From contig NZ_NJER01000001.1 of NCBI RefSeq assembly GCF_002753895.1, positions 496,001 through 560,000 of the forward strand: a stretch of 64,000 bases of DNA, given 5' to 3'. A program made the position numbers and the translations under genes. The DNA comes from Halobacteriovorax sp. JY17. GTDB taxonomy: Bacteria > Bdellovibrionota > Bacteriovoracia > Bacteriovoracales > Bacteriovoracaceae. The notes below the pieces were generated by a model. That model had not been told where the DNA came from, did not search any database, and was given only the letters and a program-made list of their open reading frames with translations. Positions 40,910-64,000 of the stretch are shown here, in pieces. How positions within the stretch are numbered: position 1 is the first letter of the stretch; the number at the start of each line of letters is the position of its first letter.

Positions 40910-41614
40910 GTGAAAAAACTAACTATAATATTCTTATTTCTTATTTCCTATTACTCCCATGCTTTTAAGCTCATGCCTATGAGCTACACCATTAAAAGCT
41001 CTGATAAATCGAAGACGGCTCTCTTCACTGTTTTAAATGATTCAGATTCTCCCATTGCTATTCAGCTCGATATACGTGTTCGAAAAATGAAAGTCGATGG
41101 TAGTGAAGAGCACCCTGAGTCTGATGATTTTCTCATCTTTCCTGATCAACTCGTTCTTGGGGCCAAGAAAAGGCGTGTCATTAAAGTGAAGTGGCTTAAA
41201 GGTGAGGTTAAAGACATTGAAAAGTCTTATAGACTTATTGCCGAGCAACTTCCAATTGATGTGACAAAGAAGAAGGCCAAGCAAACAGATATTAAAATAC
41301 TTCTGCGCTATATTGCAGCTCTCTATGTAGAGCCTGAGAAGGGGAGTTCCAAATTAAAAGTTATCAGCAGTAAGACGACCAAAGATTTAAATAGAGTTGT
41401 TTTCTATGTTGAAAATAGTGGAAATATTCATCAAGCTCTTTTGAAGCCAACTCTGACAATTACTCAGGAAGGTAAGAGTTTTCAAGTGACAAACTTAGAA
41501 GGAATTCGCGGTGAGAATATTCTCGCCATGACTAAGAGGTACTTTTCATTTATTCCACCGAAGGGAGTTAATATTCAAAAGCCTTATAGCGTTGAATTAG
41601 TTAATGATGACTAA
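40910..41614 (+). CDS. Periplasmic pilus chaperone (PapD-like)
   Basis: 234 residues, GTG start, signal peptide MKKLTIIFLFLISYYSHA. Immunoglobulin-type chaperone: SDSPIAIQLDIRVRKM, FLIFPDQLVLGAKKRRVIKVKW, and SYRLIAEQLPID, the conserved YRLxxExLP strand, then LRYIAALYVEP. Ends with a second beta domain. It delivers pilins to the usher. The stop overlaps the usher start by 11 bases. Confidence 0.9.
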   Translation: MKKLTIIFLFLISYYSHAFKLMPMSYTIKSSDKSKTALFTVLNDSDSPIAIQLDIRVRKMKVDGSEEHPESDDFLIFPDQLVLGAKKRRVIKVKWLKGEVKDIEKSYRLIAEQLPIDVTKKKAKQTDIKILLRYIAALYVEPEKGSSKLKVISSKTTKDLNRVVFYVENSGNIHQALLKPTLTITQEGKSFQVTNLEGIRGENILAMTKRYFSFIPPKGVNIQKPYSVELVNDD

Positions 41615-44000
41615 GTCTCTCCTTGCGCTGCTCATGTTCTCTATTTCTTATTACTCTGTCGCACAGAGCGAGTCGGAAATATTCTCTAAAGTATTTAAAA
41701 CAAAATCTAGATGGGTTCCTACGAGCTTTATTTTTCAACGAAAAGATATAGGAGAGATTCCTGTTAAGTTCGTAGGTAATGATCCCGTTGCTATCTTGAA
41801 TGGAGCGACTTTATTATCTAAGTATATTCGAAGTGAGATTGAGCTTAAAGAATCTCAAATGACTTTTAAAGAATTAGAGGCGCTAGGGATTCATCTCTCT
41901 CTAAATGAAGAGAAGTTTTATATCGAAGTCGATCTCAAGGCCGAAGTGGTAAAAGAGAAAACGACAAGTTTTGGATATGAGTATAAACCTCTCTGGGTAA
42001 AAGAGACAACTCCTCCAAGTGATTTCTCATTTTATACTAATCTCTACTATTATAGACCTTATAGGCATAATGTTAGAAAAGATAACTCTGATGAATTAGA
42101 TATTCAGCCGAACTTAAACTTTAAGGGTGTAGTGATTGAGTCTTCTCACACATATCAAAATGATGTTCTTCATAGAAATAGTACACGCGCGCTCTATGAC
42201 TTTCACAAATATTCCACGAGATTATCAGTTGGAGATAGCACAACTCCTTCTACTGATTACTTATCAGGTATCAGTCTTCTAGGTGCAAGTTATGGAAAGG
42301 ACTTTTCTCTTAGACCCTACGATACAACAGTTCCAAGAGGGAAGGCAGAATTTGACCTAAGAGAATCCTCAACCGTAAGAGTTTTTGTAAATGGAACTTT
42401 AATTAATATTTTAAAGCTTGAAGCAGGTACACATAAACTAGAGGACCTCCCTCTTATCCAAGGCCTAAATGAAATTAAACTTGTGATAGAGTCAGATCTT
42501 GGACGAGTTGATGAGATCGTTATTCCTGCGGCCTTCAGTCAGGATCTTTTAAAAGTTGGACTTAATGACTTCTACTACGGAGTGGGGAGGAAGAGCGATA
42601 TTATTGATAATGAACGTAGATACGAAGAAGACGAATATGTTTACACTGCCTATTTTAGAAAAGGTCTAAGCGACACATTTACTCTCGGAGCATTCTTTCA
42701 AGCAGATCGTGAGGCACAGCTTTTGGGCTCAGATCAAGTTCTCTCAACGAAGTATGGACAAATCAAAACTCAGCTTGCAGGAGTTCGAAATGGTTCGTCT
42801 ACAGGGTATTCAATAAAGGGAGAGTATTTCTTTTTAGACCAGAGAGTTGTTGGAGAATCTGCTTCGGGTCACTTATTTGGGCTTGAGCATAGAGATAGAA
42901 ATTTTAAGTTAGTCGATCAGGGACAATCCTTAGGTTTTAACAAAGATATTCTAAGCTACTCTTTTAACAAAAATATTTATGGCTATAGTTACCGCATTGG
43001 TGGGCAGTATGATTATAACCAAAATCAAGATAATACTTGGGCCCTGACGGGAAGTGTTGGAAAGACTTTTAATAGAAGATTTAATATCAATACTGTCACT
43101 AGTTACAGAACTCTTGTAAGAGGAGATGACAGCTTTGAAGTTTCCCTCTACTTTAGTTGGTTTCTTCCGGAAAAAGGGCATAACTTCTATGGAAGTTATA
43201 ATTCTCTTAGTAAAACCTCACAGGCTTCATTACAGAAAATTAAAACAGCTAGTGATGATAATCTCTCTTATCAATTTACGGGAAGAAATTCTGAATTTGA
43301 AAAATCAATAGAATTTGATAGTCGCTATGAGGCAGAGCGCTTTGAGGTTGGGCTTAGACATTCTCAGGAGAAATCTGAAGCAACATTCAATAAGTGGAGT
43401 AGTTATAGTGGAAATGTAAAAGTTGCTACATCTCTCGCTTTTGCTGGAAGTGCTTTCACTTTTGGTAAGCCTATTACAAATTCGTTTGCAATTTTAACAC
43501 GAGATAAGAATTTAGAAGGTGAGAAAGTTCTTATTAATAATAATGGCGACCAAATTGCTAGAGCAGGACTCTTAGACAATATTCTTATTTCTAAGATGCA
43601 ACCATATAGATATTTTAGATTGAGTGCTGATGGAGCGCTTTTAAGTGATGGACTTTCCTTAGAGGAGTCTGACTTCGCTCTTCTACCGACTTATAAGTCT
43701 GGTTCTCATATTCCTCTCTCTGCTAAAGGCGCCATGTCTATTTTCGGAAGAGTCTTACTTCCTAGTAACCAACCTGCAACTCTTTCAGTCTTTGATATTT
43801 TAAATGAGAAAGGGGATATTGTTTTTGGAAGCTTTACTAATAGAAAAGGGAAGCTACTGATTGAGGGACTAGAGTTTGGAAAATATACACTGAGATTAAA
43901 CTTCAAAGATGAAATTTATACAGCTTCTTTTGAATTACCAAGTGATAAAATAGGCTTTATTAATCTAGAGGCCATTAATTTAATAAAGGCTAAGAAATGA
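41604..44000 (+). CDS. Fimbrial outer-membrane usher
   Basis: 798 residues, two adjacent ATGs at 41604 and 41607, signal peptide ending YYSVA. N-terminal domain (ILNGATLLSKY), barrel region with repeated aromatic strands, plug/POTRA-type segment DTTVPRGKAEFDLRESS, VRVFVNG, GLNEIKLVIESDLGR and a C-terminal domain KGAMSIFGRVLLPSN with KGKLLIEGL. The wording matches FimD/CsuD-type ushers of the chaperone-usher pathway. The last 4 bases overlap the adhesin gene. Confidence 0.9.
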   Translation: MMTKSLLALLMFSISYYSVAQSESEIFSKVFKTKSRWVPTSFIFQRKDIGEIPVKFVGNDPVAILNGATLLSKYIRSEIELKESQMTFKELEALGIHLSLNEEKFYIEVDLKAEVVKEKTTSFGYEYKPLWVKETTPPSDFSFYTNLYYYRPYRHNVRKDNSDELDIQPNLNFKGVVIESSHTYQNDVLHRNSTRALYDFHKYSTRLSVGDSTTPSTDYLSGISLLGASYGKDFSLRPYDTTVPRGKAEFDLRESSTVRVFVNGTLINILKLEAGTHKLEDLPLIQGLNEIKLVIESDLGRVDEIVIPAAFSQDLLKVGLNDFYYGVGRKSDIIDNERRYEEDEYVYTAYFRKGLSDTFTLGAFFQADREAQLLGSDQVLSTKYGQIKTQLAGVRNGSSTGYSIKGEYFFLDQRVVGESASGHLFGLEHRDRNFKLVDQGQSLGFNKDILSYSFNKNIYGYSYRIGGQYDYNQNQDNTWALTGSVGKTFNRRFNINTVTSYRTLVRGDDSFEVSLYFSWFLPEKGHNFYGSYNSLSKTSQASLQKIKTASDDNLSYQFTGRNSEFEKSIEFDSRYEAERFEVGLRHSQEKSEATFNKWSSYSGNVKVATSLAFAGSAFTFGKPITNSFAILTRDKNLEGEKVLINNNGDQIARAGLLDNILISKMQPYRYFRLSADGALLSDGLSLEESDFALLPTYKSGSHIPLSAKGAMSIFGRVLLPSNQPATLSVFDILNEKGDIVFGSFTNRKGKLLIEGLEFGKYTLRLNFKDEIYTASFELPSDKIGFINLEAINLIKAKK

Positions 44001-44893
44001 AAATAGTTTTACTTCTTTTAATTTTATTCTCTTTTAACTCCTTTGCTGAAAATTGCTATGTCTATGTAACGTCTCCTGTCGTTAATTTTACGCAGTCAAC
44101 ATCGGATCAAAGTGTTGCACTTGATCTAGATCTCGTTAAATTTTCAAATTCAAATAGATGTAGGAGTTATTACTTGGGCTTTTCAAAGGGAAGTGCTGGC
44201 TCCTATGATAGAAAACTTTATAATGGTGGATACTCAGTTAATTACAATATTTACGAAAAAGAAAATACAAGTAAAGAACTTTGGAGTGCTTACGAAAATA
44301 GTAGCAGTAGAAAAGTTAAAGTTGACATGGACTCTTGGTATAAGAGAGTGACTGTCTATGTAAAGTTACCGGCCCCTACTTCAACGTTGCAGACAGGTCT
44401 CTATACGGATTCAACTCAAATCCAGATACTTCCTAGAAGTAGTGGAAGTACAGGAGGAGGCTTTAGCCAACTTACTACAAATTTAAATATTCAATCTGAC
44501 ATTAACCTCTCTCTTGTTGGAAGAGGGGGGCAGTATGATGAGAATCAAACATCACACACTTTAAACTTTGGAACAATGACTACTGGAAAGATGAGGAGCT
44601 TTGATTTAATTGTGAAAGCAAATACGGGCTATAGAATAAGTGTTTCTAGTGAGTATGATGGAAGCCTTGCTCATAATGAAAAATCAAATTACAAAGTAGG
44701 ATATACTTTTGGTGTGAACGGTTCTGGCATGAGTTTAGTAGGATCTAAGAGTTCTCCTAAGCAAATATATTCCTCAAACACTCCTAGTCAAAATGGTAGA
44801 GTTATTGAGATAGATGTATCTCTTTTAAATACTGAGCAGAAGCTATCAGGGCCTTATTCTGACTATATTTACTTTACAGCAATTAGTAATTAA
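43997..44893 (+). CDS. Fimbrial tip adhesin / minor subunit with two spore-coat-U-like domains
   Basis: 298 residues, signal peptide MKIVLLLLILFSFNSFA. The first domain (ENCYVYVTS ... NRCRSYYLGFSKGSAGSYDRKL) has a Cys pair and the GFSKGS wording of the spore coat U / Csu tip family. The second starts near residue 155 after a Gly/Ser-rich linker (GSTGGGF) and repeats the pattern LTTNLNIQSDINLSLV ... GPYSDYIYFTAISN, like a pilin. Two-domain architecture is that of tip adhesins (compare CsuE). Overlaps the usher by 4 bases. Confidence 0.75.
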   Translation: MKIVLLLLILFSFNSFAENCYVYVTSPVVNFTQSTSDQSVALDLDLVKFSNSNRCRSYYLGFSKGSAGSYDRKLYNGGYSVNYNIYEKENTSKELWSAYENSSSRKVKVDMDSWYKRVTVYVKLPAPTSTLQTGLYTDSTQIQILPRSSGSTGGGFSQLTTNLNIQSDINLSLVGRGGQYDENQTSHTLNFGTMTTGKMRSFDLIVKANTGYRISVSSEYDGSLAHNEKSNYKVGYTFGVNGSGMSLVGSKSSPKQIYSSNTPSQNGRVIEIDVSLLNTEQKLSGPYSDYIYFTAISN

Positions 44894-51361: not shown

Positions 51362-52489
51362 TTATTGAATTGGGTAAATTTGGTAAGCGTGATTAATGAG
51401 GTGCTCGGCCCATTCATACTCTCTTAGGATAACCTTTGCATTTAGGTGAGTTTCCTCTCCCTCATTTTCTAAATCGTAATCATAGAGAGGCATTGAAGGA
51501 TCAGAGTAGATCGAGTCTCTTACATAGAAGACTCCTTTATCTCTACAACCACCACGAGATGTTAGAGAGTCATCTACTTGCTTTCCTCTCTTTCTAAAAT
51601 TCTTTGCTTTTCGTAGTAATTTATTCTTTTCAGAAGTGGTGCTGGCGGCATTGGCTTCCTCGACAATTTCATCTGCTCTTGCGTTCATTCTCTGGTCATA
51701 AGTTCCAACAAAAGGGCAACCCTCTGTACTAGCATGATCATTAAAGCCAACGATCATTGTTGCATGCCAAAAACCTACGTGATTATAAATAGCGAGAACC
51801 GGAGCGTTTCTCTTTTTAATCATATTTTTAATTTTACTTACTATATCTTTTGGAGCTGTTGTCACATTCCATCTATTGGCCGCTGGGTCTTTGAAAATTA
51901 TTTCTCTCTCAAACTTTGGGAGCTTTATCATTGGCGCCGTTAGATCATCGTATAAGCTTATCCAGCTATAAGAGATTCCATAGTACGCTTTCTCTTCGTG
52001 TGCAATGGCCGGAATCCTCTTTCCACCTACAGACTTATACCAGCCCTTCGTGTATCTATAGTCTTCGTTGCGATAAATTTTTCCACGCTTATTAAGAGCG
52101 TAGATCATATCAGTAGGCCAATAATCTAAGTCATTATCAAGACCCTCTTTTGAAAGATTCATAAAATACCTCTCTGAGAGGTCTTTATCTTTTGGATTTG
52201 TAATTTGTGGATTAAGTTTCGAGTACCACCATTCTACAGTTCCAGTACTACTCATAAAAAGGCAGCTTCCTGCATTTTCTTGGTCTGGCGAAGCGGTTAC
52301 GTATTGGAGAAGAGAGTTATAACCCCCGTTGAATGATTCACTACTTGGGATAATAGCTTTTGAGTACACAGGAGTCGTTCCCTCGCTCTTAGTGTTTGGA
52401 TATTTAAGACCAGTTATAAGACGTGAGTTACTTTCAGTAAGTGCGAATGTAGGTAGTGTAAATAATAATAATAGTAATAGCTTGGCCAA
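51362..52489 (-). CDS. Secreted papain-like (C1-type) cysteine peptidase, divergent
   Basis: 375 residues. TTG start with AAGGAG seven bases upstream; signal peptide MAKLLLLLLFTLPTFA. DQENAGSCLFMSS has the Gln six residues before the Cys, as in papain. DLSERYFMNLS resembles the LSEQ segment. The His region reads VGFWHATMIVGFND. Where papain has KNSWG, this protein has VRDSIYSD, so the triad would be Cys-His-Asp. A long insertion rich in Ala/Lys (ADEIVEEANAAS) lies between the His and the end. Divergent from the 52697 operon with 207 bases between, consistent with a shared regulatory region. Confidence 0.72.
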   Translation of the reverse strand: MAKLLLLLLFTLPTFALTESNSRLITGLKYPNTKSEGTTPVYSKAIIPSSESFNGGYNSLLQYVTASPDQENAGSCLFMSSTGTVEWWYSKLNPQITNPKDKDLSERYFMNLSKEGLDNDLDYWPTDMIYALNKRGKIYRNEDYRYTKGWYKSVGGKRIPAIAHEEKAYYGISYSWISLYDDLTAPMIKLPKFEREIIFKDPAANRWNVTTAPKDIVSKIKNMIKKRNAPVLAIYNHVGFWHATMIVGFNDHASTEGCPFVGTYDQRMNARADEIVEEANAASTTSEKNKLLRKAKNFRKRGKQVDDSLTSRGGCRDKGVFYVRDSIYSDPSMPLYDYDLENEGEETHLNAKVILREYEWAEHLINHAYQIYPIQ

Positions 52490-52696: not shown

Positions 52697-53671
52697 ATGA
52701 AACAATGGAAAATGAAATTTCCAAAGGCTCTCTGTATTGTAGGAATGTCTCTTGCAATTCAAGTACAGGCCTTTGCTTCACCTATAAAACTGGTGGATGT
52801 CCTAGTCAATGAGTCAGGTTTGACTGAGTCACTTTCTAAATTTGGTATAAGAGGCTCAAGCGCATTACAAGTAAGAAGTTATGTGAATAATTCTATTACC
52901 TCTCTTTATCTCTTCGGAAATAAGAAACCAACGGCTAGTCAGCTAAAGAGGTTCATTGCAAATCTAAATACTACTAGTAGTAAAGATAAGCGGTATCAGG
53001 CGGATCTTGTAAAATTGCTCTCAAGATCTGAGAGTGAAATTAGTGAAGAGGATTTAGTAAAATCAATTAACTCTCTTATCTACTTGGCGAATAGGCATGG
53101 AAAAAATAGTGCTGCTGTTTTGGCCTGTACTGCTTGTGTGAGCGATACATTGAGTTCTAAGGGCTTTAAGTTTACTCTTGAAACGATGAATAATTCTAAG
53201 TCAAAAGAAGTTCTTTCTAAGATTCTTCCGTCTAACCCAAGAAGTCTCACCAATTATATCAACACAAAATTAACAAAATTTAAAATTGGTGATCTCTCAC
53301 GTTCTGGAAACTTAGTTGCCTCTGAAGAAGAAAAAGCTCTTGGACTTTTTCTAGGGCTAAAAGAAATAGGATCAGTGGAGCAGAAGAATTTAATTCGTGC
53401 GATAGAGTCAGTTTCAAAAGACTCTGCTGGAAACGTAAATATAGTAAGCACTGCCAATCCACATAAGCTTTGGAAAATTTTTAGTGAAGATATTTCTGAA
53501 AGCGAAATGGCGGGATGGACAAAACTCTTAGATGAAGTTGCGGCCAAGTCAAAAGGAAGTGCTAAGAAGAAAGATATATTCTTTGAAGTTCTTGAAAAGC
53601 GTGCAAAGGATAGTCCTGAGCTTCAAGACAGAGTTCAGATTTTAAAGAATAAGAATTGTTTTTTTCAATAA
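52697..53671 (+). CDS. Secreted protein, unknown, operon partner of the amidoligase-like lipoprotein
   Basis: 324 residues with a signal peptide (KALCIVGMSLAIQVQAFA). AAAGGGG lies ahead of the ATG. The mature part is helical with a Cys pair in VLACTACVSD and ends KNKNCFFQ. Not recognised. The next gene starts 20 bases on, so the two are co-transcribed; this one could be a chaperone, substrate or inhibitor of the 1005-residue protein. Confidence 0.65.
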   Translation: MKQWKMKFPKALCIVGMSLAIQVQAFASPIKLVDVLVNESGLTESLSKFGIRGSSALQVRSYVNNSITSLYLFGNKKPTASQLKRFIANLNTTSSKDKRYQADLVKLLSRSESEISEEDLVKSINSLIYLANRHGKNSAAVLACTACVSDTLSSKGFKFTLETMNNSKSKEVLSKILPSNPRSLTNYINTKLTKFKIGDLSRSGNLVASEEEKALGLFLGLKEIGSVEQKNLIRAIESVSKDSAGNVNIVSTANPHKLWKIFSEDISESEMAGWTKLLDEVAAKSKGSAKKKDIFFEVLEKRAKDSPELQDRVQILKNKNCFFQ

Positions 53672-53690: not shown

Positions 53691-56600
53691 ATGACTACTA
53701 ATAAGAAAAAGAATTTAGTTTGGAAACAGTTGCCAGCTCATCTGGCAATGATGTCTCTTCTCTATAATTGTGCAGGCGTTGGCACAGGCCCTCGCTATAT
53801 TGCCGATGATAGTGGAGATCCAAAGAGTGCTTATGAAGTATGGGGATTACTGCAGCAAGGTGCTACGAGGTATAATGCCAATGCTGTTCAAGTGGGAGGC
53901 GAAAATATTGACGGCTTCCTTGCTGGGGTAACTTTTGGCGCGGAAAAAGAAGCCTCATCAGGCCTTATCACAAGAATTATGGGACCTAATGGAGAAGATT
54001 TTCAGCGATATATTTCAAGTCTACCTGATGAAAAGAGGAAAGTTTTTATTTCTGATTTCTTAGGTAATTATATAAAGAATGCAAACGGCTACAGAACTTA
54101 TGTGACTGATGAAGGGGTGAAAGTTGACCTTGCTAGTGATGTAAAAGACGTTGATGGAGTCGCAAAGGTGATTGACCTTGAACAACTAAGAGGTGTTGAT
54201 TACGCTACAGCTGACTTAGAAGTTTTAGATGCGAAATTCGCTAAATTTGTCGAGATGACAGAAGATAGGCCAATGTCTTTCATTAAGCCTTCTGTGAAAA
54301 TGAAATTCTTTAAAGCAAATATGCCCGGTCTAGAGGGAACAAATTTTCCAAAGAGTTATAGTAACTATATTACAAACTTCGGTCTCCCTCAAAAATATAT
54401 TGAAGATGCTCACGGGCACTATGGTGGTGTAGGCGGAGGATGGGAATTAGGTTTTACTCCTCAAAATAGTTACGCTGAATTTGAAGAGATGGTTGCCTGG
54501 TTTAGAAAGTCTTTAAAGAATGCGGGACAAATATTTCAGTCTCCAGGACACCAGAGAATGGTGTTTAAAGCTCACGCAGATTTACCAGAAGGAAAACTCG
54601 CCGAATTGTACCGTGGTATTCAGGCGCTAATTGTCATCGATGGAATTAAAGGTGGCACTGGAATTGAGAAGGCTAATTATAAGGGAGTGCAGACAGATAA
54701 TATGCTTGCGAGTCTAAGAACGGCCAGAGGTGTGATTAGATTAGAGGGAGCTAGATGGAAAGAGGGAACGCACGGGGTTGAATTCCGTGCAGGAACTAAG
54801 GACTTAAAGCTTGCAAGATTCTATCAAACAGTTCTTGCCTCGAGAGTGTCGGCCAATGACTTTAGTGGGCTAAGCGATATTGGAGATTGGAGTCTATGGG
54901 ATGGAAATGTTCCAAGTGCTGCAACACTGGCCCAGAGGCACGGAATAAGTGAAGAGGTCGCACAAAAGGCTTTACACAATATTAGTGCAGGTAGCTTGAA
55001 GAAAGAGTTTACTCTTCCTCTTTGGGATTGGACTGATGCTAATAATCCAATTATTAAAAAGAATAAGAGAGCGATAATAAATTCTCTTTCAAAAGACTTC
55101 TTTGAGCAAGTGGCAGCACTTGATCCAGAAAGTAATACCATTGAAACCGAAGTGCGAAGCCTTCTAAGGTCTTGGACTAAAATGACAAGACTCTCTGATG
55201 AGTTTAGAAGATACTTACAGCCAAGACGTGGCCTTAATATGGCGCAGGATCTTCTCCAATTTAATTTGCCAGAAGATGGTAGACCTTTTGTTAGAGCAGT
55301 GACAGATGTGAATAATATCGACCTTGGTATTGAATACTCAGGTAAGATGCCGATGATGGTCAATGCTGATTTCACTCCAGATAAAATGGTGGATAATAAG
55401 AAGGCATGGCTTCAAACATACGGTGATTTATCAGAAGATGAAAGAGAGGCCATCATTAGAAATGTGGCGCAAGATCTTCATAAGTCTCTAGGCGGAGAAG
55501 GTGTGGCAACCAAGATAGAAGATGGTGGTGGCCATGGGCACGGTCTTGAGCTCTCTTATGAGATTCGAGATCCAAAGAATAGAAAGTGGATTGTAGAATG
55601 GGATGGTATCGGAAGAACTTATACTCCTAATGGGGATGTAATCGAAGGATCAGCGAGAGCAGGGTCGATCGAGCTGGTAACACCAAAGTTTACTCCTGAG
55701 ATTGCGGATATATCGGCAGTCTATGAGGCCTTTGAAAAGAATAATATTCTTCCTAATATTCTCTCTGGTGGTGGACACGTTAATATTGACCTCGCTGCCT
55801 TTGATGGAAAGCCAAAGGAGCTTGCAAGATTTCTAACAATATTCCATGAGAATAGATCTGTGATGTCTCTTATGTTTCAGCACGTAAATCGTGTGAAGAC
55901 ATCTGAGCCAATAGCGATTTCTGATAATCTTAGAAATCAACTTAAGAACTTTCAAGGTAGTGAAGAGGACCTTAAGAAGCTTCTCTACAATGAAGAGTAC
56001 TTCAATACAAGATTTGGAAGAAAGTCTAGGTATCTACAACTTGATATGTCAGCGTACTTTCAAGATGTGATTCCTGAGCAGTTCTTATCTGATGATTTTG
56101 ATATTGCAAATCCTACAGTTCCTTGGAGAAGACAATTTAGAGTTGATCCTAGAATTAGAAAAGCAGAATTTAGAATGTTTAATGCGCCTAGAGACACGGC
56201 TGAATCCGCTCTTCAGATTAGACTTGTAAGAGCAATGCTCTCTAAGGCCCTTAATGAAGAGGACGCTCTAAGCGGTACAGTTCAGAATGTATCTCATACT
56301 GATTATCTAAAGACGCCTGACAAGGCCTATGCAGACCTTGAGAAGTTATGTGCTCAACTTGGGTTAAATGCTGATGACTTTAAACCAGCGGTCGCAGAGG
56401 GACTTTCTGAGACAGATTTGGCCACTAGGTCTATTTTCTTTGAGCCTTTTGATCAGAAGATGAAAATGCACCCTAAGCAAGTTGGTTGGGGAGAAGCGGT
56501 TGCTCCTAGAGAAACCCCTTTAAATTCAGCAGGGCGAGCGTGGGAGCCTGGTGCAGCCGATGAGCTAAATACTATGACTCATCAATTTAGAATCGAAGCC

Positions 56601-56708
56601 GCCGAAGCCGCTGAGCAGAGACGAGCGGGGATTGTTCCTGATCGCTATGTTCCGGGGCAATTTAAGAGAACCGATAGTTGTATTGATGCTATAGGTCCTT
56701 TGCTCTAA
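53691..56708 (+). CDS. Lipoprotein-like protein with two amidoligase/glutamate-cysteine-ligase-like domains
   Basis: 1005 residues. AAGGAAA precedes the ATG. The N-terminus has a hydrophobic stretch ending LLYNC, an imperfect lipobox. Copy 1 (about 240-390): GGGWELGFTP, SPGHQRMVFKAH, GVEFRAG. Copy 2 (about 610-850): GHGLELSYE, WDGIG, SIELVTPKF, GGGHVNIDLAAF, KAEFRMFN. The order ExE, D, E-x-x-P, GxHV(N/H), R..EFR is that of the amidoligase branch of the glutamine-synthetase/GCS fold. Copy 2 keeps most landmarks and copy 1 is more diverged. Known relatives form amide bonds with ATP and are often encoded near peptidases. An exported location conflicts with ATP use, so it may bind or hydrolyse instead. 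Family call is by eye and moderate. Confidence 0.6.
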   Translation: MTTNKKKNLVWKQLPAHLAMMSLLYNCAGVGTGPRYIADDSGDPKSAYEVWGLLQQGATRYNANAVQVGGENIDGFLAGVTFGAEKEASSGLITRIMGPNGEDFQRYISSLPDEKRKVFISDFLGNYIKNANGYRTYVTDEGVKVDLASDVKDVDGVAKVIDLEQLRGVDYATADLEVLDAKFAKFVEMTEDRPMSFIKPSVKMKFFKANMPGLEGTNFPKSYSNYITNFGLPQKYIEDAHGHYGGVGGGWELGFTPQNSYAEFEEMVAWFRKSLKNAGQIFQSPGHQRMVFKAHADLPEGKLAELYRGIQALIVIDGIKGGTGIEKANYKGVQTDNMLASLRTARGVIRLEGARWKEGTHGVEFRAGTKDLKLARFYQTVLASRVSANDFSGLSDIGDWSLWDGNVPSAATLAQRHGISEEVAQKALHNISAGSLKKEFTLPLWDWTDANNPIIKKNKRAIINSLSKDFFEQVAALDPESNTIETEVRSLLRSWTKMTRLSDEFRRYLQPRRGLNMAQDLLQFNLPEDGRPFVRAVTDVNNIDLGIEYSGKMPMMVNADFTPDKMVDNKKAWLQTYGDLSEDEREAIIRNVAQDLHKSLGGEGVATKIEDGGGHGHGLELSYEIRDPKNRKWIVEWDGIGRTYTPNGDVIEGSARAGSIELVTPKFTPEIADISAVYEAFEKNNILPNILSGGGHVNIDLAAFDGKPKELARFLTIFHENRSVMSLMFQHVNRVKTSEPIAISDNLRNQLKNFQGSEEDLKKLLYNEEYFNTRFGRKSRYLQLDMSAYFQDVIPEQFLSDDFDIANPTVPWRRQFRVDPRIRKAEFRMFNAPRDTAESALQIRLVRAMLSKALNEEDALSGTVQNVSHTDYLKTPDKAYADLEKLCAQLGLNADDFKPAVAEGLSETDLATRSIFFEPFDQKMKMHPKQVGWGEAVAPRETPLNSAGRAWEPGAADELNTMTHQFRIEAAEAAEQRRAGIVPDRYVPGQFKRTDSCIDAIGPLL

Positions 56709-56817: not shown

Positions 56818-57906
56818 GTGAAATTCATTTCAATACTTATTCTTCTACTTTCTTTAACAAATTTAAACGCTGGAGAAGTGGCCTACGAGTCTCCTTATAT
56901 AGAAGATTCAAAAGCTTTAGATGATCTTCATAGCGTAAAGAGTCTCTTATCTTCATCCAACACTCACTCTCTCATTAAATTACAAACAAGTGTTAAGTCT
57001 CAGAAATCGAGAGGGACGTGCACAATGTTTACTTCCATTGGACTCTTAGAGCACCTACTCATTAGAGAGAGAGGATATGATAAAGAGCTTGATCTATCTG
57101 AAGAATGGCTGGAGTACTTAATCATGACAAGTAAGACCAGTGAGGGGTCGTCCACATCCAGAAACCTGAAGGCCATTTTTAATTATGGTGTAGTCTATGA
57201 AGCTACTCTTCCTTATATTGGTGAGAGATGGCGCGCTCTTGTGGATTCACCACTAGCGGTGAAAAGATGTGGAGAGTTCAGTGGAATGAGACTAGAGAGC
57301 TGTCTCCTTGGTCATAGAGACCCTTACTTACTTTCAATGAGTGATGAAGAAATTTTGGAAACAGGAGATTTGAATTTTATTGAGATTAGAAATGAGTCAC
57401 GTCTTTTAAAAGATGAGATAGTAGAAGGGATTCTACCATTAAAGAAATCTTATAAGATTAGAAAACTCTCTGAAGTTAAAAGAGACTTAAAGGAAGGAAG
57501 ATCCGTTATCGTTGGAATGAAGCTCTACTACGGATCGTGGAATCATAGTAAGACGGATAAGCTCTCAATTCAAAAAAGAGATAAGCGTAAGTGGTATGAG
57601 GGGATTGTGACATATCCTGAGATGGGGAGTGTGGACCGAAGAATTTCAGGAAAAGAAGGTGGGGGACACTCACTTATTCTCGTTGGCTACGATGATGAAA
57701 GAGTTATAACTTCTAAAATGCTAATGGAAGATGGTACTTGGAAAGAATTTTCTTATAAAGGTGTGTACTACTTTAAGAACTCATGGGGCGTCAGAGGTTC
57801 TGGCAGAGACTTCTCTCTTGATGGAGTTAGCTATCCTGGCTATGGAATGATTTCACAGAAGTATCTTCACGAGTTTGGATCTTTTTATACCATACCCAAA
57901 AACTAG
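56818..57906 (+). CDS. Secreted papain-family (C1A) cysteine peptidase
   Basis: 362 residues, GTG start with GGGA upstream, signal peptide KFISILILLLSLTNLNA. Active-site motifs are complete: SQKSRGTCTMFTS (Gln and nucleophile Cys), LDLSEEWLEYL, GGGHSLILVGYDD (His) and YYFKNSWGVRGSG (Asn). Full papain-type triad, with an N-terminal ~60-residue segment after the signal that may be a short propeptide. Acts outside the cytoplasm. Lies behind the terminator of the amidoligase-like gene and converges with arfB by 4 bases. Confidence 0.88.
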   Translation: MKFISILILLLSLTNLNAGEVAYESPYIEDSKALDDLHSVKSLLSSSNTHSLIKLQTSVKSQKSRGTCTMFTSIGLLEHLLIRERGYDKELDLSEEWLEYLIMTSKTSEGSSTSRNLKAIFNYGVVYEATLPYIGERWRALVDSPLAVKRCGEFSGMRLESCLLGHRDPYLLSMSDEEILETGDLNFIEIRNESRLLKDEIVEGILPLKKSYKIRKLSEVKRDLKEGRSVIVGMKLYYGSWNHSKTDKLSIQKRDKRKWYEGIVTYPEMGSVDRRISGKEGGGHSLILVGYDDERVITSKMLMEDGTWKEFSYKGVYYFKNSWGVRGSGRDFSLDGVSYPGYGMISQKYLHEFGSFYTIPKN

Positions 57907-58298
57907 AATTTCTCTTGTCTGAGTTTCTTAGTGAGTCCTTGAAGTTTCTTATTCTTGATGCGCTTTTCTTTAGAGGACCTGGTAGGCTTTGTCTTAACTC
58001 TTACTTTCTTAAATTCCTTTGCTTTTAAGATGAGCTTCTCTAATTTTCTTAAAGCGCCTTCTCTATTGAGCTTTTGGGTTCTATGTTCAGACGAAGTAAT
58101 TAAAACGCTACCACCATCTTTAATCATATTGGGAAATTTTAATTTGAAGTTTTCTTTTTCTCTGTAGCTGAGAAGATCTGTCTTATAGATATTCCAAGTG
58201 AGATTGGCCTTAGTATTGACCTTGTTCACATTTTGACCTCCTTTGCCGGAGGCCCTAGAAAAACTAAATTCAACTTCTTTTTCAATTAGATCAATCAT
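57903..58298 (-). CDS. arfB: Peptidyl-tRNA hydrolase ArfB (YaeJ)
   Basis: 131 residues. The release-factor GGQ motif is present in FSRASGKGGQNVNKV, and the C-terminus is a basic unstructured tail (KPTRSSKEKRIKNKKL) that binds in the empty mRNA channel. This domain alone, without the codon-recognition domains of RF1/RF2, is ArfB, which rescues stalled ribosomes. Its ATG overlaps the stop of the giant repeat gene by one base (TAATG), so the two are translationally coupled. Confidence 0.93.
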   Translation of the reverse strand: MIDLIEKEVEFSFSRASGKGGQNVNKVNTKANLTWNIYKTDLLSYREKENFKLKFPNMIKDGGSVLITSSEHRTQKLNREGALRKLEKLILKAKEFKKVRVKTKPTRSSKEKRIKNKKLQGLTKKLRQEKF

Positions 58299-61200
58299 TA
58301 TGGAAGAAAGTATTCCCCAATTCCGTAGAGACCATTTTGCTCAAATGGGAAAATAATAGAGTTATTGGTTGGATTATAATCCATACTTAATCCTCGACAA
58401 TAGAGATTGGTAATAGGCCAACTTAATCCTCCCATATCAGAATCGGTCGTAATATTATGCTGATAAATTCTACCACCATAGCAGTAGTAGAGGTAGTCAT
58501 TACCTGCAGAGTTTATCCAAATAGCACTATCATCTATATTTCTAGCAGTTCGAGCAAGCTTAACAGCATTTCCCCCTGGAGTCATTGACCATACTTGCCC
58601 TTCAATTCGGTATCGACCTGCAAGAATCCAGCGATTATTAGTAGCGTCCCACCAAGCATTAGATCCCCACGTATCATAGTAAGGGACTTTACAAGTTGCC
58701 GCTGTTGAACCTGAGGCACAGATTCCAGAATAACCGCCGACATAAGTTTCCGCCGGATCATTTGTTCCTGCAAGATGAGCTTGAGTGAAGCTATTAGTGG
58801 CATCATAAGTTTTTAAAGCAAAGTCTTGCCAGTGAATATCTGCTGATTTATAGCGCATTCTAGTCATTAGAAGCTTTCCTCCTCCATAACCAATTGGCAA
58901 TGCGTGGTCTTGGTTACCAGAAGTTGAGCCATAGAGACTTAAACCTGGTTGTCCGTCACCACTCCAGAAGTTTGTACTACTTCCTCCAATAATTCTCTCC
59001 CATAGGTTTGTTGAACGGTTAAGACGAGTAATATCACCATTACTTCCTCTTCGAACCATTATATCTCCGGTGGCCTTATCTGCTACCCAGTATGATCCAG
59101 TGTAAAATCCCTGTTGCTTTGGGTCTGTTGAAAAATTTTGATAACCACTATTTCCATTACCAGCAAGGGTATTTATATTTCCCTCTATGGCAAACTCTTT
59201 AAAGTAATAGGTCCTTGGATCTGAAGTGATAATTTTTCCGTTATCTAGACGAGCGACAGTATCTATATAAGAGAATCTTGCATTTAAGGCGTTGATATTA
59301 TCCCCGTAAGCTGGATGTTGACCAAAGAGTGTCACAACGTTTCCATTTGAATCAAGAGTCCTTATTTGTCCAGCATCAGTGAAGTAGAACTTACCTGTTG
59401 CTGTTACAAAGAAGTCTTGAATATCCATATTACATGAGAGGGCCGCAGTTCCATCACTGCAATGACCTCTCGTTCCACTTCCTAGAACCTTTGTATAAGA
59501 GCCATCCCAATTATTTCTCATAATATAATTTCTATCTATGATTTGATATTGCTTTCCATTCATTCCTGTAATTGGAAAATATCTATAGTATCTATAACTA
59601 TCATTATAGAAGTCATTTCTTGCAACAAAAGTTTCTGGGTCTAAGAATGCCTTAGTGTATCTATCGTTAAAGTCATTACAAGTTCCATAACTATCTTCGT
59701 GATAAGTTTGAACCCATGCTCCAGTAAGAGCTGAGGTTGTAGGGTTGTAGGCCATCCCTAAGTGAGAGAGGCGACACTCTAAAATATTTTGAGAGTGATT
59801 GAGAGCGTCTCCAGTTCCCGTGACATATTTGGAAGTAATACTTCCAGAGGCCGCTTTAAAAATACGGAGTCTATAACTTGGAGAATTCCAATTCTTAATT
59901 CCATAGTCAGACATAAAGTATATGTCTCCATTTGGTGTCGCAAAGAATGGGATATTTCGTGATGCCCATGAGTTTGAAGAGTGGGTCGTCATCGCTAGAT
60001 CTAGTGGATTAGCAATGGTATCAGTTGTGTCAGCTCCTCCTCCAATAATTGTTTCTATTGTTGGAGTGGCCTCATTTAAATTTACTCTTCTAATTCTATT
60101 CGTATCGAGAATAAGCAGTCTATTTTGAAAGTCTAGTGCTATCTTAGTTGCATATCTAAGCGTTGCATTTGTCGCTGCACCACCGTCACCTGTACTTGTT
60201 CCCGTACTTCTAATGAAAATTTTCTGCTTTCCATCTTCAGGGTCAATAATAAGAATTCCTCTCTTATAGTCACTAAAGTAGACCGTTCCATTCTCTGTCA
60301 CAACTAATGTTCCAGGGTCAGATTCAGATCCTTCTTTTCTAGTAAAGAACATTGCAGAGACTGCAGAGCCACCAAGACCTGATTCTGTATTACCGGCGAT
60401 AATTTTAATTGTATCCGAGTTCAACGGATTAGAAATAGACTGCGCACTAATAGAAGTTCCATCAGTTACTTTTGCTCTAATTTTATATGAAGTATTGTAA
60501 GGTGAACCACCGGTCCACTTAAAACAACCTTCGTTGGCCTCAAGAGTATAACCTGAGCAACCATAATTTGTATTTACATCAAGAGTTTCTGCTCCAGCGA
60601 TGAGAGTAAAGTCTATTTCATTTGGACTATAGTAGAGTGAAATTGCTCCGGCCGGCAGAGCAGCGTTATCTGTAATGGTATATCTAATATAAACGTCTGA
60701 GCCCGCAGGCACAGCTGACTGCGCCCTTGTTGGAGGGTTAGGAGAGTTCGGAGTATTGGCCGCAATAACGTCAGAGGCTTTTGGAGGCTCTCCTGGATCA
60801 TAGACTCTGTCAAAAGTATCTACTGTCGCCGTCCCTGTACCAGCATTGGTTAGGTCTGAGATATTTGAAGCTTCATCTTTTACCCAAGCATAGACGTTGA
60901 GAGTACTATTTGGAGTCCAGCCAAGAAGGTGAAAGTATTCTCCGTTTAAATTTAGAGTCTGAGCAATGGCCAGACCAACGGAAGGATCATTCACTCCTAC
61001 CCAGCATGCATCAGTAACAATAGGTTTATTTGTATCCTCTGTTTTTATACAGAGATGTGAGATTCCAACGTTGGTGTTCTGACTTGTTGCCGTCATATTA
61101 ATTGTTATATTCGCATTCTTTGTCGGATTAGGTGAATTTGATGAGAATGCGCTAATCGTTGGAGCATCTGTTTCTCTAATCCAAGTTCCAGAAACTGTCG

Positions 61201-64000
61201 TTGTATTTAAAACGGCATTTGTCTGAGAGAAATTATAAGTTCTTGTGGCATCAGTTGTTTCAGAACTTGTGACCCAAGTCCATGATCCAGCAGCACAAGA
61301 AGTCGTTGTACTTTCACTTCCTGTAATATCAATAGTGAGTCCTGCCTCACAACTTCCTTCGAAGGTCGTCGTGTCTTCATTAGATTTAGCTGAATTACTT
61401 GCAATTGTTAATGCTGGACCAGTTGTATCTCTTGTCCAATTAATTGTTATGGTCGATGTATTTCCTGCAGGATCGCTTTGAGTGAGAATAAAGCTTCTCG
61501 CCCCATCAGTTGAGTAAGTTGGCGTTGTCCAATTCCAGTTTGTAGATGAGCAACCAATCGTATCAGTTGTATCTCCTGTTATAGCGACACTATTTGATCC
61601 TTCACAAGATCCTGAAAATGTAAGCGCGTCGTGGTTGGTTGTCTCTGTAATAGTTCCTCCCGCGCTCGCTATATACGGAGAAGTTGCAGTAAAGCTTGGA
61701 GGTGTCGCATCTCTATCCCATGAAAGAGATAGGGAAGTAGATGTATTTCCTGCGCCATCAGTTTGTAAGAGAGAATAAGAATAATTTCCATCTACTGTCT
61801 TTGCTGATGGTGTCCACGACCAACTTCCTGAAGAACACGGAAAAGTTGTTGTTTCATCACCAGAAACTGAAATAGTGTAAGTTCCTTCACAAGTACCACT
61901 CCATTGATTAGGAGTATTATTCTTTGTGAAATCAGGTGAAACGCCACCAGTCTTTGTTAGAATTGGAGCAACTTCATCTCTTATCAAGCTTCTTGATAGA
62001 GAAGTGATATTTCCTGCAACATCAGTTTGTTTAACTGTGATATTCTTTGTTCCATCTCCATTAGAGAAGTTAATTAATTGACTATAAGTTCCAGCAGGAC
62101 AAGTAATATCAAAGCTTGTTTGAATATCTCCACTGAAATTAACATTAATTCCTGTTTCGCAGACCCCTGCTATTGTTGCACTAGAGGTGTGGTAACTTCC
62201 ATTGGCCGGAGAAGTAATCGTAAGCCCCGGAGGCGTAGAGTCTACATCAAAGTCGATAGAAGAAACGCTTCTTGAATTACCTGCTAAGTCAGTAAAGTCG
62301 ACTCTAAATTTTGCATTACTTATATCTAAACTTGGCGTTGTCCAAGAATAATTAAAAGGAGCGTTTGACAGAGGACCGTTGGAAGAAGTCGTCGTTCCAA
62401 GTGTTGACCAAGATGAACCATTGTAGAATGAGACCGTGTAATTTAGAGACGTGCTTGAGTTAAGCTCCGTTGTTGTCCAATTGAGAGTGTTGGAGGCTCC
62501 ACCTTTTAGGGCAACTGGGTCTATTGTCGATAATGATGGAAGAACAGTATCGTAAGTGACATCAATACTTGTCGCGGTATTAGAAACATTTGCATGACTA
62601 TCTTTTGACCATAATTTTACAGAGTGAATTCCTTGATTTGTTGTCGCCAAAGTAAATGAGAGCGCTGAAGCTGTCGTTGAGCAAGTTTGCCACCCTGCTG
62701 CTCCCGCAGAAGGTTTAGATCCTTCATTAATGTAGATCTGAGGTGTGTCTGCACAAGTAGAAGCTGTAAAAGTTGTCGCTGTTGAATTTGTAAAAATTGA
62801 CGATGAAAGAGCAACTGCTGGTGGTGCAGGGGCCGTTTTGTCAGTAACAGCTATGGTTACAGTCGCAACTGATAGCGCGTCTATTGTTCCATCATTTGCA
62901 ATAAAAGTGAATGAATCAGTACCATGGAAATTAGCGTTGGCATCATAGTTACAAGTGAGGTCTGAACCATAACTTCCTGTTGTAATACAATTTGAAAGCG
63001 TTCCATTTGATGGAGCAGTCATTACTTTATAGTTTAGGGTGTCTCCGTCAATATCTGTTGCATTTGAAAGAGTAATAGATAAAGTGACATTGTCATCTGT
63101 ATTATAATTTTGATCAGCGGCCATTACTGGGCGATCATTAACGGCATTAACTGTTATTGATACAGTTGTATTTGCAATTGAGTCAAGTGCTCCATCATTC
63201 ACTTTATAAGTAAATGAGCCACTACCGTTGTAATTTCCATTTGGAGTATAAGTACAGGCCTGGGCTGTACAGTTTAGAACTCCATTACTTGGATTTCCTA
63301 CTATAATATAAGTTAGAGTGTCTCCCTCTACATCACTTCCAAAGTTTAGAGTGAAGTTAATCGCAGTATCTTCATTTGTTGCGATCGATTGATTTGCTGC
63401 TTTTACAGGAGCGTCGTTTACAGGAGTTACAGTGATAGTCACAGTATTAATTGTCGAATCAAGATTCCCATCATTGACTTTATAAGTGAAAGTATCAGTT
63501 CCGTTAAAGTTTAATGATGGTGTATAACTACAACTTCTTGAAGCTCCTCCTGTACAAGAGAGAGTTCCACTAGCAGTAGATGAAACTACTATGTATGAAA
63601 GAGGATCACTTTCTATATCACTTCCTGCTGTGAGGCTAAAATTTAAAAGTGTATCTTCATTTGTTGAAAGCGATTGAGTTGCGGCAAGAGTAGGAGCATC
63701 ATTTACTGCGCTTATATTAACAGTCACAGTATTAACTGTTGAATCAAGACTTCCATCGTTCACTTTATAGGTAAAAGTAGTAGAACCATTGAAATTTGTC
63801 GCAGGAGTGTAAGTACAGGCTCTAGAAGTTCCTCCTGTACAAGATAAATTTCCTGAAGAAGGATTCGCCACAATAATATAACTTAGTGTATCTAGGTCAA
63901 CGTCAGCACCTGCTGTTAAATTGAAGTTTAGGGCGGTATCCTCTGTTGTCGCAATTATCTGTGTCGCAGCTAACGTTGGAGCGTCATTAACAGCATTAAC
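58298..64000 (-). CDS. Giant cadherin-like/Ig-like repeat protein with NHL-type C-terminus (5' end outside window)
   Basis: The frame is open to base 64000, so only the C-terminal ~1900 residues are visible. From the outside inward: tandem 95-residue cadherin-like repeats with VNDAP / NEDT / FTYKVNDG (about 64000-62845), a linker with Big-like domains, four Ig-like repeats with the GSCE...W pattern (about 62245-61165), then a propeller-like region (about 60350-58298) with NHL-like units (GILIIDPEDGKQKIFI, IRRVNLNEATPTIETII, IRTLDSNGNVVTLFG). These repeats are typical of very large cell-surface or secreted adhesins, often calcium-dependent. Which secretion system exports it cannot be told from this part. 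Ends with a 1-base overlap with arfB. Confidence 0.88.
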   Translation of the reverse strand, partial: VNAVNDAPTLAATQIIATTEDTALNFNLTAGADVDLDTLSYIIVANPSSGNLSCTGGTSRACTYTPATNFNGSTTFTYKVNDGSLDSTVNTVTVNISAVNDAPTLAATQSLSTNEDTLLNFSLTAGSDIESDPLSYIVVSSTASGTLSCTGGASRSCSYTPSLNFNGTDTFTYKVNDGNLDSTINTVTITVTPVNDAPVKAANQSIATNEDTAINFTLNFGSDVEGDTLTYIIVGNPSNGVLNCTAQACTYTPNGNYNGSGSFTYKVNDGALDSIANTTVSITVNAVNDRPVMAADQNYNTDDNVTLSITLSNATDIDGDTLNYKVMTAPSNGTLSNCITTGSYGSDLTCNYDANANFHGTDSFTFIANDGTIDALSVATVTIAVTDKTAPAPPAVALSSSIFTNSTATTFTASTCADTPQIYINEGSKPSAGAAGWQTCSTTASALSFTLATTNQGIHSVKLWSKDSHANVSNTATSIDVTYDTVLPSLSTIDPVALKGGASNTLNWTTTELNSSTSLNYTVSFYNGSSWSTLGTTTSSNGPLSNAPFNYSWTTPSLDISNAKFRVDFTDLAGNSRSVSSIDFDVDSTPPGLTITSPANGSYHTSSATIAGVCETGINVNFSGDIQTSFDITCPAGTYSQLINFSNGDGTKNITVKQTDVAGNITSLSRSLIRDEVAPILTKTGGVSPDFTKNNTPNQWSGTCEGTYTISVSGDETTTFPCSSGSWSWTPSAKTVDGNYSYSLLQTDGAGNTSTSLSLSWDRDATPPSFTATSPYIASAGGTITETTNHDALTFSGSCEGSNSVAITGDTTDTIGCSSTNWNWTTPTYSTDGARSFILTQSDPAGNTSTITINWTRDTTGPALTIASNSAKSNEDTTTFEGSCEAGLTIDITGSESTTTSCAAGSWTWVTSSETTDATRTYNFSQTNAVLNTTTVSGTWIRETDAPTISAFSSNSPNPTKNANITINMTATSQNTNVGISHLCIKTEDTNKPIVTDACWVGVNDPSVGLAIAQTLNLNGEYFHLLGWTPNSTLNVYAWVKDEASNISDLTNAGTGTATVDTFDRVYDPGEPPKASDVIAANTPNSPNPPTRAQSAVPAGSDVYIRYTITDNAALPAGAISLYYSPNEIDFTLIAGAETLDVNTNYGCSGYTLEANEGCFKWTGGSPYNTSYKIRAKVTDGTSISAQSISNPLNSDTIKIIAGNTESGLGGSAVSAMFFTRKEGSESDPGTLVVTENGTVYFSDYKRGILIIDPEDGKQKIFIRSTGTSTGDGGAATNATLRYATKIALDFQNRLLILDTNRIRRVNLNEATPTIETIIGGGADTTDTIANPLDLAMTTHSSNSWASRNIPFFATPNGDIYFMSDYGIKNWNSPSYRLRIFKAASGSITSKYVTGTGDALNHSQNILECRLSHLGMAYNPTTSALTGAWVQTYHEDSYGTCNDFNDRYTKAFLDPETFVARNDFYNDSYRYYRYFPITGMNGKQYQIIDRNYIMRNNWDGSYTKVLGSGTRGHCSDGTAALSCNMDIQDFFVTATGKFYFTDAGQIRTLDSNGNVVTLFGQHPAYGDNINALNARFSYIDTVARLDNGKIITSDPRTYYFKEFAIEGNINTLAGNGNSGYQNFSTDPKQQGFYTGSYWVADKATGDIMVRRGSNGDITRLNRSTNLWERIIGGSSTNFWSGDGQPGLSLYGSTSGNQDHALPIGYGGGKLLMTRMRYKSADIHWQDFALKTYDATNSFTQAHLAGTNDPAETYVGGYSGICASGSTAATCKVPYYDTWGSNAWWDATNNRWILAGRYRIEGQVWSMTPGGNAVKLARTARNIDDSAIWINSAGNDYLYYCYGGRIYQHNITTDSDMGGLSWPITNLYCRGLSMDYNPTNNSIIFPFEQNGLYGIGEYFLP
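61165..62245 (-). repeat. Four Ig-like repeats in the giant protein
   Basis: Units of roughly 85-90 residues with the frame GSCEGxxxVxITGDxxT...CSSGSWxW..., GxxSxxxTQTDxAGNTS and xWxRDxTxP. Visible openings are GVCETGINVNFSGD, GTCEGTYTISVSGD, GSCEGSNSVAITGD and GSCEAGLTIDITGS. Adjacent copies share DAGNTS or DPAGNTS. Protein-level repeats of the bacterial Ig-like type. Confidence 0.75.
62845..64000 (-). repeat. Four tandem 95-residue cadherin-like repeats
   Basis: Copies begin at VNDAP codons near 63991, 63706, 63421 and 63142, giving periods of 285, 285 and 279 bases, and the last ends near 62845. The core frame is NEDT..NF.L..GSD...D.L.Y.., CTYTP..N.NG...FTYKVNDG. The array probably continues beyond base 64000. 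Confidence 0.85.

What the first reader, a model, noticed from the sequence alone, without database searches (positions are those of the whole stretch)
53691..56708. Exported lipoprotein-like protein with an internal duplication of an amidoligase/GCS-like fold
Two halves of the 1005-residue product line up by landmark: GGGWELGFTP with SIELVTPKF, FQSPGHQRMVFKAH with LSGGGHVNIDLAAF, then L-P-E-G-K-L-A-E-L with G-K-P-K-E-L-A-R-F, and GVEFRAG with KAEFRMFN. Known amidoligases and glutamate-cysteine ligases use this order of residues and ATP, and are usually cytoplasmic. Here the hydrophobic N-terminus ends in LLYNC, which suggests envelope anchoring. Either the protein is cytoplasmic after all, or it is an ATP-independent exported derivative, perhaps binding or hydrolysing peptides. 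I know of no described system with this form.
Basis: partly seen in the sequence, partly recalled or inferred. Interest (0 to 1): 0.78.

Follow-up and report, generated by a model that had tools for sequence, protein, structure and literature searches.

The report
Exported amidoligase-fold protein of predator-type bacteria
A bacterium of the Bdellovibrio phylum makes a large exported protein whose second half belongs to an enzyme family (amidoligases) that normally joins peptides inside the cell using ATP; it is one of many exported relatives in that phylum, usually encoded beside secreted proteases, which suggests an undescribed peptide chemistry outside the cell or in prey.

Summary
The ORF is real and conserved. 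It belongs to a family found in about 60 of 369 Bdellovibrionota genomes, aligned down to 21% identity. The C half (about 538-860) is an amidoligase-fold domain: PF12224 matches 28 of 37 members (best 4.8e-8), and it matches other exported amidoligases of the phylum (hhalign 95%). GxE, EWDG, E-x-x-(S/T)-P, GGxHxN and ExR are conserved, but the second Glu of GxExE is Ser/Thr in 42/42. The proposed internal duplication is not supported. The N half has invariant ExE, His and ExR in amidoligase order, but no profile comparison rises clearly above controls and AlphaFold models were too poor to judge. Export is well supported across the family; lipidation of this copy is not (N at -1 of LLYNC; own-genome lipoboxes use S/G/A). 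The gene follows a secreted CxxC protein and faces a secreted papain-like protease in 16-18 loci; another clade neighbours a secreted subtilase. Members keep one cysteine near a terminus. Exported amidoligases recur in the phylum, some fused to ATP-grasp domains, so export does not by itself exclude ATP use. Best reading: an active, exported, derived amidoligase acting on envelope or prey peptides. New variant of a known kind; chemistry undetermined.

The parts
53691..56708 (+). 1005-aa exported protein with a C-terminal amidoligase-fold domain (the finding)
   Evidence: ORF list; ribosome-binding site AAGGA; family alignments
53691..53771 (+). N-terminal export segment, residues 1-27 (..LAMMSLLYNC); lipobox not canonical
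   Evidence: 33 of 42 family members score above 1.9 on a hydrophobic-core scale, window copy 1.55; canonical amidoligases at most 1.05, GCS2 proteins at most 1.72; -1 residue of lipoboxes in the genome sample S 11, G 4, A 1
53904..54890 (+). N half, residues 72-400, fold not established; invariant E85-K86-E87, W251, H287, E364, R366, R385
   Evidence: alignment of 42 sequences; no significant profile match
55302..56270 (+). C half, residues 538-860, Amidoligase_2-type domain; E548, D638, E661, H696, N698, R734, E826, R828 conserved, second Glu of GxExE replaced by S550 (S or T in 42/42)
   Evidence: Pfam, whole-genome family search 22.7 bits, hhalign, alignment
56679..56681 (+). Cys997, near-C-terminal cysteine conserved in all 32 main-clade members
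52697..53671 (+). 324-aa secreted protein, directly upstream, same strand; conserved C144-x-x-C147 and C-terminal C321-F-F
   Evidence: conserved directly upstream in 18 loci; conserved columns; no Pfam or NCBIfam family
51362..52489 (-). secreted papain-like cysteine peptidase, divergently transcribed
   Evidence: conserved in 16 loci; invariant C76, H242, D325; a homologue matches Peptidase_C1 only weakly, E=0.03, below cut-off
56818..57906 (+). secreted papain-like cysteine peptidase with full triad, downstream
   Evidence: Peptidase_C1 3.3e-5; C68, H284, N321 invariant in 7 loci

Best explanation
An exported enzyme with a derived amidoligase-fold C domain. Shown: family conservation, amidoligase relationship of the C half, family-wide export-type N-terminus, conserved neighbours. 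Inferred: it acts on carboxyl or amide groups of peptides in the envelope or in the prey compartment, with the N half and the co-encoded secreted protein as substrate-holding or regulatory parts, while the neighbouring secreted protease trims or reverses the product. Most likely single mechanism (inferred): amide-bond formation with nucleotide from the invaded or lysed prey, because the residues matching the phosphate-side metal site of the glutamine-synthetase fold (E548, H696, E826, R828; mapping recalled, not tested) are invariant and exported ATP-grasp/amidoligase fusions exist in the same phylum. About 0.35 for ATP-using ligation, about 0.3 for nucleotide-independent hydrolysis or transfer.
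For: Amidoligase_2 matches 28 of 37 members, best 4.8e-8; hhalign of the C half against exported amidoligases E 3e-8 to 5e-8, about 95%. Active-site-like residues invariant in 42 sequences down to 21% identity, which argues against a dead domain. Export signal across the family. Secreted CxxC partner and papain-like peptidases in one clade, subtilase in another. Exported amidoligases are common in the phylum (17 of 20 checked), five with ATP-grasp matches.
Against: The second carboxylate of GxExE, a metal ligand in the fold, is Ser/Thr in every member, unlike all other exported amidoligases examined. The window copy scores 21.0 against a cut-off of 22 as a whole protein, just over it. ATP outside the cytoplasm is not shown for this organism, whose lifestyle is unknown. 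No structure or biochemistry.
Confidence: 0.4

Rival explanations
1. Nucleotide-independent enzyme: the exported fold has dropped ATP and hydrolyses or transfers peptide amide bonds in the envelope.
For: Export; loss of the second Glu of GxExE in 42/42; added invariant H615-G-H617 and R777-K778 not seen in the relatives compared; coupling to proteases.
Against: E548, H696, E826 and R828 stay invariant; exported relatives with ATP-grasp domains imply that ATP chemistry outside the cytoplasm is used in the phylum.
Confidence: 0.3
2. Catalytically silent peptide- or wall-binding scaffold, held to a partner through the single terminal cysteine.
For: One conserved Cys near a terminus, the only mature Cys in some members up to 2075 aa; helical HEAT-like tails in one clade.
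Against: Invariance of all the catalytic-type positions at 21% identity.
Confidence: 0.18
3. About architecture, not exclusive of the others: the N half is a second amidoligase fold, so the chain is an internal dimer.
For: Order E85-x-E87, E252 (main clade), H287, E364-x-R366; the E252-to-H287 spacing equals E661-to-H696, 35 residues; N residues 78-240 against the C half, main clade, score 23.4 where 21 controls reach 20.3 at most; hhalign P 0.03 over the first helix.
Against: No comparison significant; E252 is not kept in the subtilase-linked clade.
Confidence: 0.4
4. Cytoplasmic after all: the hydrophobic start is incidental.
For: Window copy has a modest hydrophobic core (1.55) and no canonical lipobox.
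Against: All family members carry an N-terminal hydrophobic segment, 33 of 42 strong, many with AxA or canonical lipobox sites; neighbouring genes encode secreted proteins.
Confidence: 0.05

Closest known systems
Amidoligase_2 (PF12224), COOH-NH2 ligases of the glutamine-synthetase/GCS fold
   Same: C half: order and identity of GxE, E-x-x-(S/T)-P, HxN and ExR-type motifs; profile match in 28 of 37 members
   Different: Exported; GxExE reduced to GxEx(S/T); long insertions; about 500 extra N-terminal residues; proteases next door
Exported amidoligases of Bdellovibrionota without ATP-grasp (e.g. L088, L107, L116, L117)
   Same: Signal peptide or lipobox, GGxHxH/N and ExR-FN motifs; closest profile match to the C half
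   Different: Keep GxExE, single amidoligase domain, no shared N half
Exported amidoligase plus R2K ATP-grasp fusions (L098, L104, L106, L109, L111)
   Same: Same phylum, exported, amidoligase domain
   Different: Carry an ATP-grasp domain; weaker profile similarity to the C half
RimK/RimB and RloA-C systems (ATP-grasp protein with opposing peptidase; PMC12239564)
   Same: Logic of a peptide ligase paired with a peptidase, RloA being secreted
   Different: Ligase there is ATP-grasp and cytoplasmic; no homology claimed

Membership tests
Amidoligase_2 (PF12224) | Score over Pfam's curated cut-off | tested here: inconclusive
   Window protein 21.0 against 22, 22.7 as a domain; 28 of 37 members match at E up to 1, best 4.8e-8
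Amidoligase_2 (PF12224) | GxExE metal-binding motif | tested here: not met
   G546-I-E548-Y-S550; Ser/Thr at the second Glu in 42 of 42; GxExE kept in the other exported and canonical members
Amidoligase_2 (PF12224) | E-x-x-(S/T)-P strand, G-x-H/Q-x-N/H strand and ExR-xFN hairpin, in order | tested here: met
   E661-x-x-T-P665, G694-G-H696-V-N698, E826-F-R828-M-F-N
Amidoligase_2 (PF12224) | ATP-dependent carboxylate-amine ligation | not testable with these tools
   Needs biochemistry
GCS2 (PF04107) | Profile match | tested here: not met
   GCS2 not among the listed Pfam families of the 37 members; PF04107 search finds nothing in the genome; hhalign 20% at best for the C half
Carboxylate-amine ligase clan, N half | Profile match of residues 40-470 to clan members or to the C half | tested here: inconclusive
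   Insignificant, but in the same windowed test the known distant pair GCS2/exported amidoligase reaches only about 30%, so absence is weak evidence
Carboxylate-amine ligase clan, N half | Fold | tested here: inconclusive
   AlphaFold2 mean pLDDT 32 full length and 42 for residues 69-395, two-sequence alignment
Lipoprotein (signal peptidase II substrate) | Lipobox [LVI][ASTVI][GAS]C | tested here: not met
   L-Y-N-C in the window copy; genome sample uses S/G/A at -1. Orthologues in sister genera have VGC, TGC, PGC, SSC; others look like signal peptidase I substrates
Papain-like peptidase C1 (neighbour 56818-57906) | Profile over cut-off and Cys-His-Asn triad | tested here: met
   24.5 against 20.7 bits; C68, H284, N321 invariant

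The most novel reading that the evidence does not exclude
Bdellovibrionota export a whole set of ATP-dependent peptide ligases (amidoligases and ATP-grasp/amidoligase fusions) that build or tag peptides in the envelope or in the prey with prey nucleotides; this family is a two-domain branch with a remodelled metal site, paired with a secreted protease and linked to a partner by one terminal cysteine.
Probability: 0.2. Interest if true: 0.85.

Novelty: new variant of a known kind. Interest (0 to 1): 0.55.

Why it matters
Amidoligases are known or assumed to be cytoplasmic and ATP-driven. A conserved, exported radiation of them in a phylum of predatory bacteria, with a branch that has altered its metal site and partners with secreted proteases, would point either to ATP-dependent chemistry inside prey or to a new nucleotide-free use of the fold. 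Both are directly testable on purified protein.

Tried and rejected
Duplication by profile comparison: hhalign of N against C, trimmed windows, global mode, main clade only, reversed and unrelated-family controls, ungapped profile scan: no support beyond a marginal helix-1 hint. Solved structures: nothing. Viral, plasmid and phage collections: no relatives of the protein. A general C-terminal-Cys sorting tag of exported proteins: rejected, 29 seen against 24 expected in the genome sample. Secreted partner as a detached HEAT tail: its profile finds only its own family, not the HEAT tails of the long forms.

Full report
Observation. The ORF 53691-56708 (+, 1005 aa) exists with a good ribosome-binding site 19 bp after the previous gene. 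It is single-copy in its genome. The protein is 81-88% identical over its length to orthologues in its genus. A profile of the family finds matches in 67 of 369 Bdellovibrionota genomes, 61 of them strong (E below 1e-25). The nearest named record is a Bacteriovoracaceae assembly. No relatives of the protein were found in phages, plasmids or viral contigs.

C half. Hmmscan puts residues 590-728 in Amidoligase_2 at 3.4e-4, 21 bits against a cut-off of 22; as a domain in the genome search it scores 22.7. Among 37 members 28 match the same model, best 4.8e-8. HMM-HMM comparison with exported amidoligases from the same phylum gives 95% probability and E of 3e-8 to 5.5e-8, higher than with short cytoplasmic amidoligases (4-9%) or GCS2 (20% at best). 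Conserved residues line up: G546-x-E548, E636-W-D638, E661-x-x-T-P665, G694-x-H696-x-N698, R734, E826-x-R828. One feature departs: the second Glu of GxExE is Ser or Thr in all 42 family members, while the other exported and canonical members keep it. Motif 1 is assigned by its local match (second hhalign alignment) and invariance, not by the significant part of the alignment.

N half. Invariant E85-K86-E87, H287, E364-x-R366 occur in the amidoligase order, and the E252-to-H287 distance equals E661-to-H696. The best hints are another register over the first helix (offset 469; hhalign P 0.03) and a score of 23.4 against a control maximum of 20.3. As the known pair GCS2/exported amidoligase reaches only about 30% in the same windowed test, the negative result is weak. 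The duplication remains open.

Export. All 42 members start with a hydrophobic segment; 33 score above 1.9 on a simple scale where short cytoplasmic amidoligases reach 1.05 and GCS2 proteins 1.72. The window copy scores 1.55. Its LLYNC is not canonical: lipoboxes in about 460 kb of its genome have S (11), G (4) or A (1) at -1. Some orthologues have canonical lipoboxes and others AxA sites, so the family is exported by either route; lipidation of this copy is undecided.

Neighbourhood and clades. A tree of the C half shows three groups, each one side of a branch. The window's group (17 members in the tree) has a secreted 306-367-aa protein with conserved CxxC and C-terminal Cys 10-54 bp upstream in 18 loci; a divergent papain-like peptidase is kept in 16 loci and a second one downstream in 7. 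A second group carries helical, HEAT-like tails, up to 2127 aa in total. A third group, with only 21-25% identity, sits beside a secreted subtilase in most loci. Thus unrelated secreted peptidases accompany the family. A second cysteine (C887) is found in all members with the upstream partner and in only one other.

Cysteine. All 32 members outside the third group keep a Cys 5-16 residues from the C-terminus; in several it is the only mature Cys (for example one in 2075 residues). The third group has instead a Cys just after the signal peptide (9 of 10 without any other mature Cys). The genome shows no general excess of C-terminal Cys in exported proteins, so this is a family trait; disulfide tethering is inferred only.

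Wider context. Of 20 longer Amidoligase_2 proteins inspected in the phylum, 17 have export signals by the same scale, and five match R2K-type ATP-grasp domains, two of those over Pfam's cut-offs. Full-text searches found no description of exported amidoligases in Bdellovibrio relatives; the foundational amidoligase survey (PMC3268129) was not available, so novelty is limited by that gap.

Mechanism. Shown: conserved amidoligase-type active-site pattern in an exported protein with protease neighbours. Inferred: peptide amide chemistry outside the cytoplasm. ATP use is undecided; the lost carboxylate argues against standard ligase chemistry, the retained residues and the exported ATP-grasp relatives argue for nucleotide use.

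Noticed in passing
L098, L104, L106, L109, L111: Signal-peptide or lipobox proteins joining an Amidoligase_2 domain to R2K-type ATP-grasp domains (L111 seems to carry a further ATP-grasp domain by eye): exported proteins with two ATP-dependent ligase folds.
   Followed up: partly
window 52697-53671 and orthologues: Uncharacterised secreted family with invariant C144-x-x-C147 and C-terminal C-F-F; no Pfam or NCBIfam match.
   Followed up: partly
L047, L050, L053-L059, L063: Relatives of the target with HEAT-like C-terminal tails, up to 2127 aa, keeping one near-C-terminal Cys.
   Followed up: partly
L070-L076: Target relatives next to a secreted subtilase (PF00082) with a conserved C-terminal Cys pair.
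   Followed up: partly
window 58298-64000 (-): Very long repeat protein, open at the window edge, with repeated VNAVNDAPTLAATQ-type (cadherin/Ig-like looking) units.
   Followed up: no
window 41604-44893 (+): Pair of secreted proteins that look like an outer-membrane usher and a small partner (by eye only).
   Followed up: no
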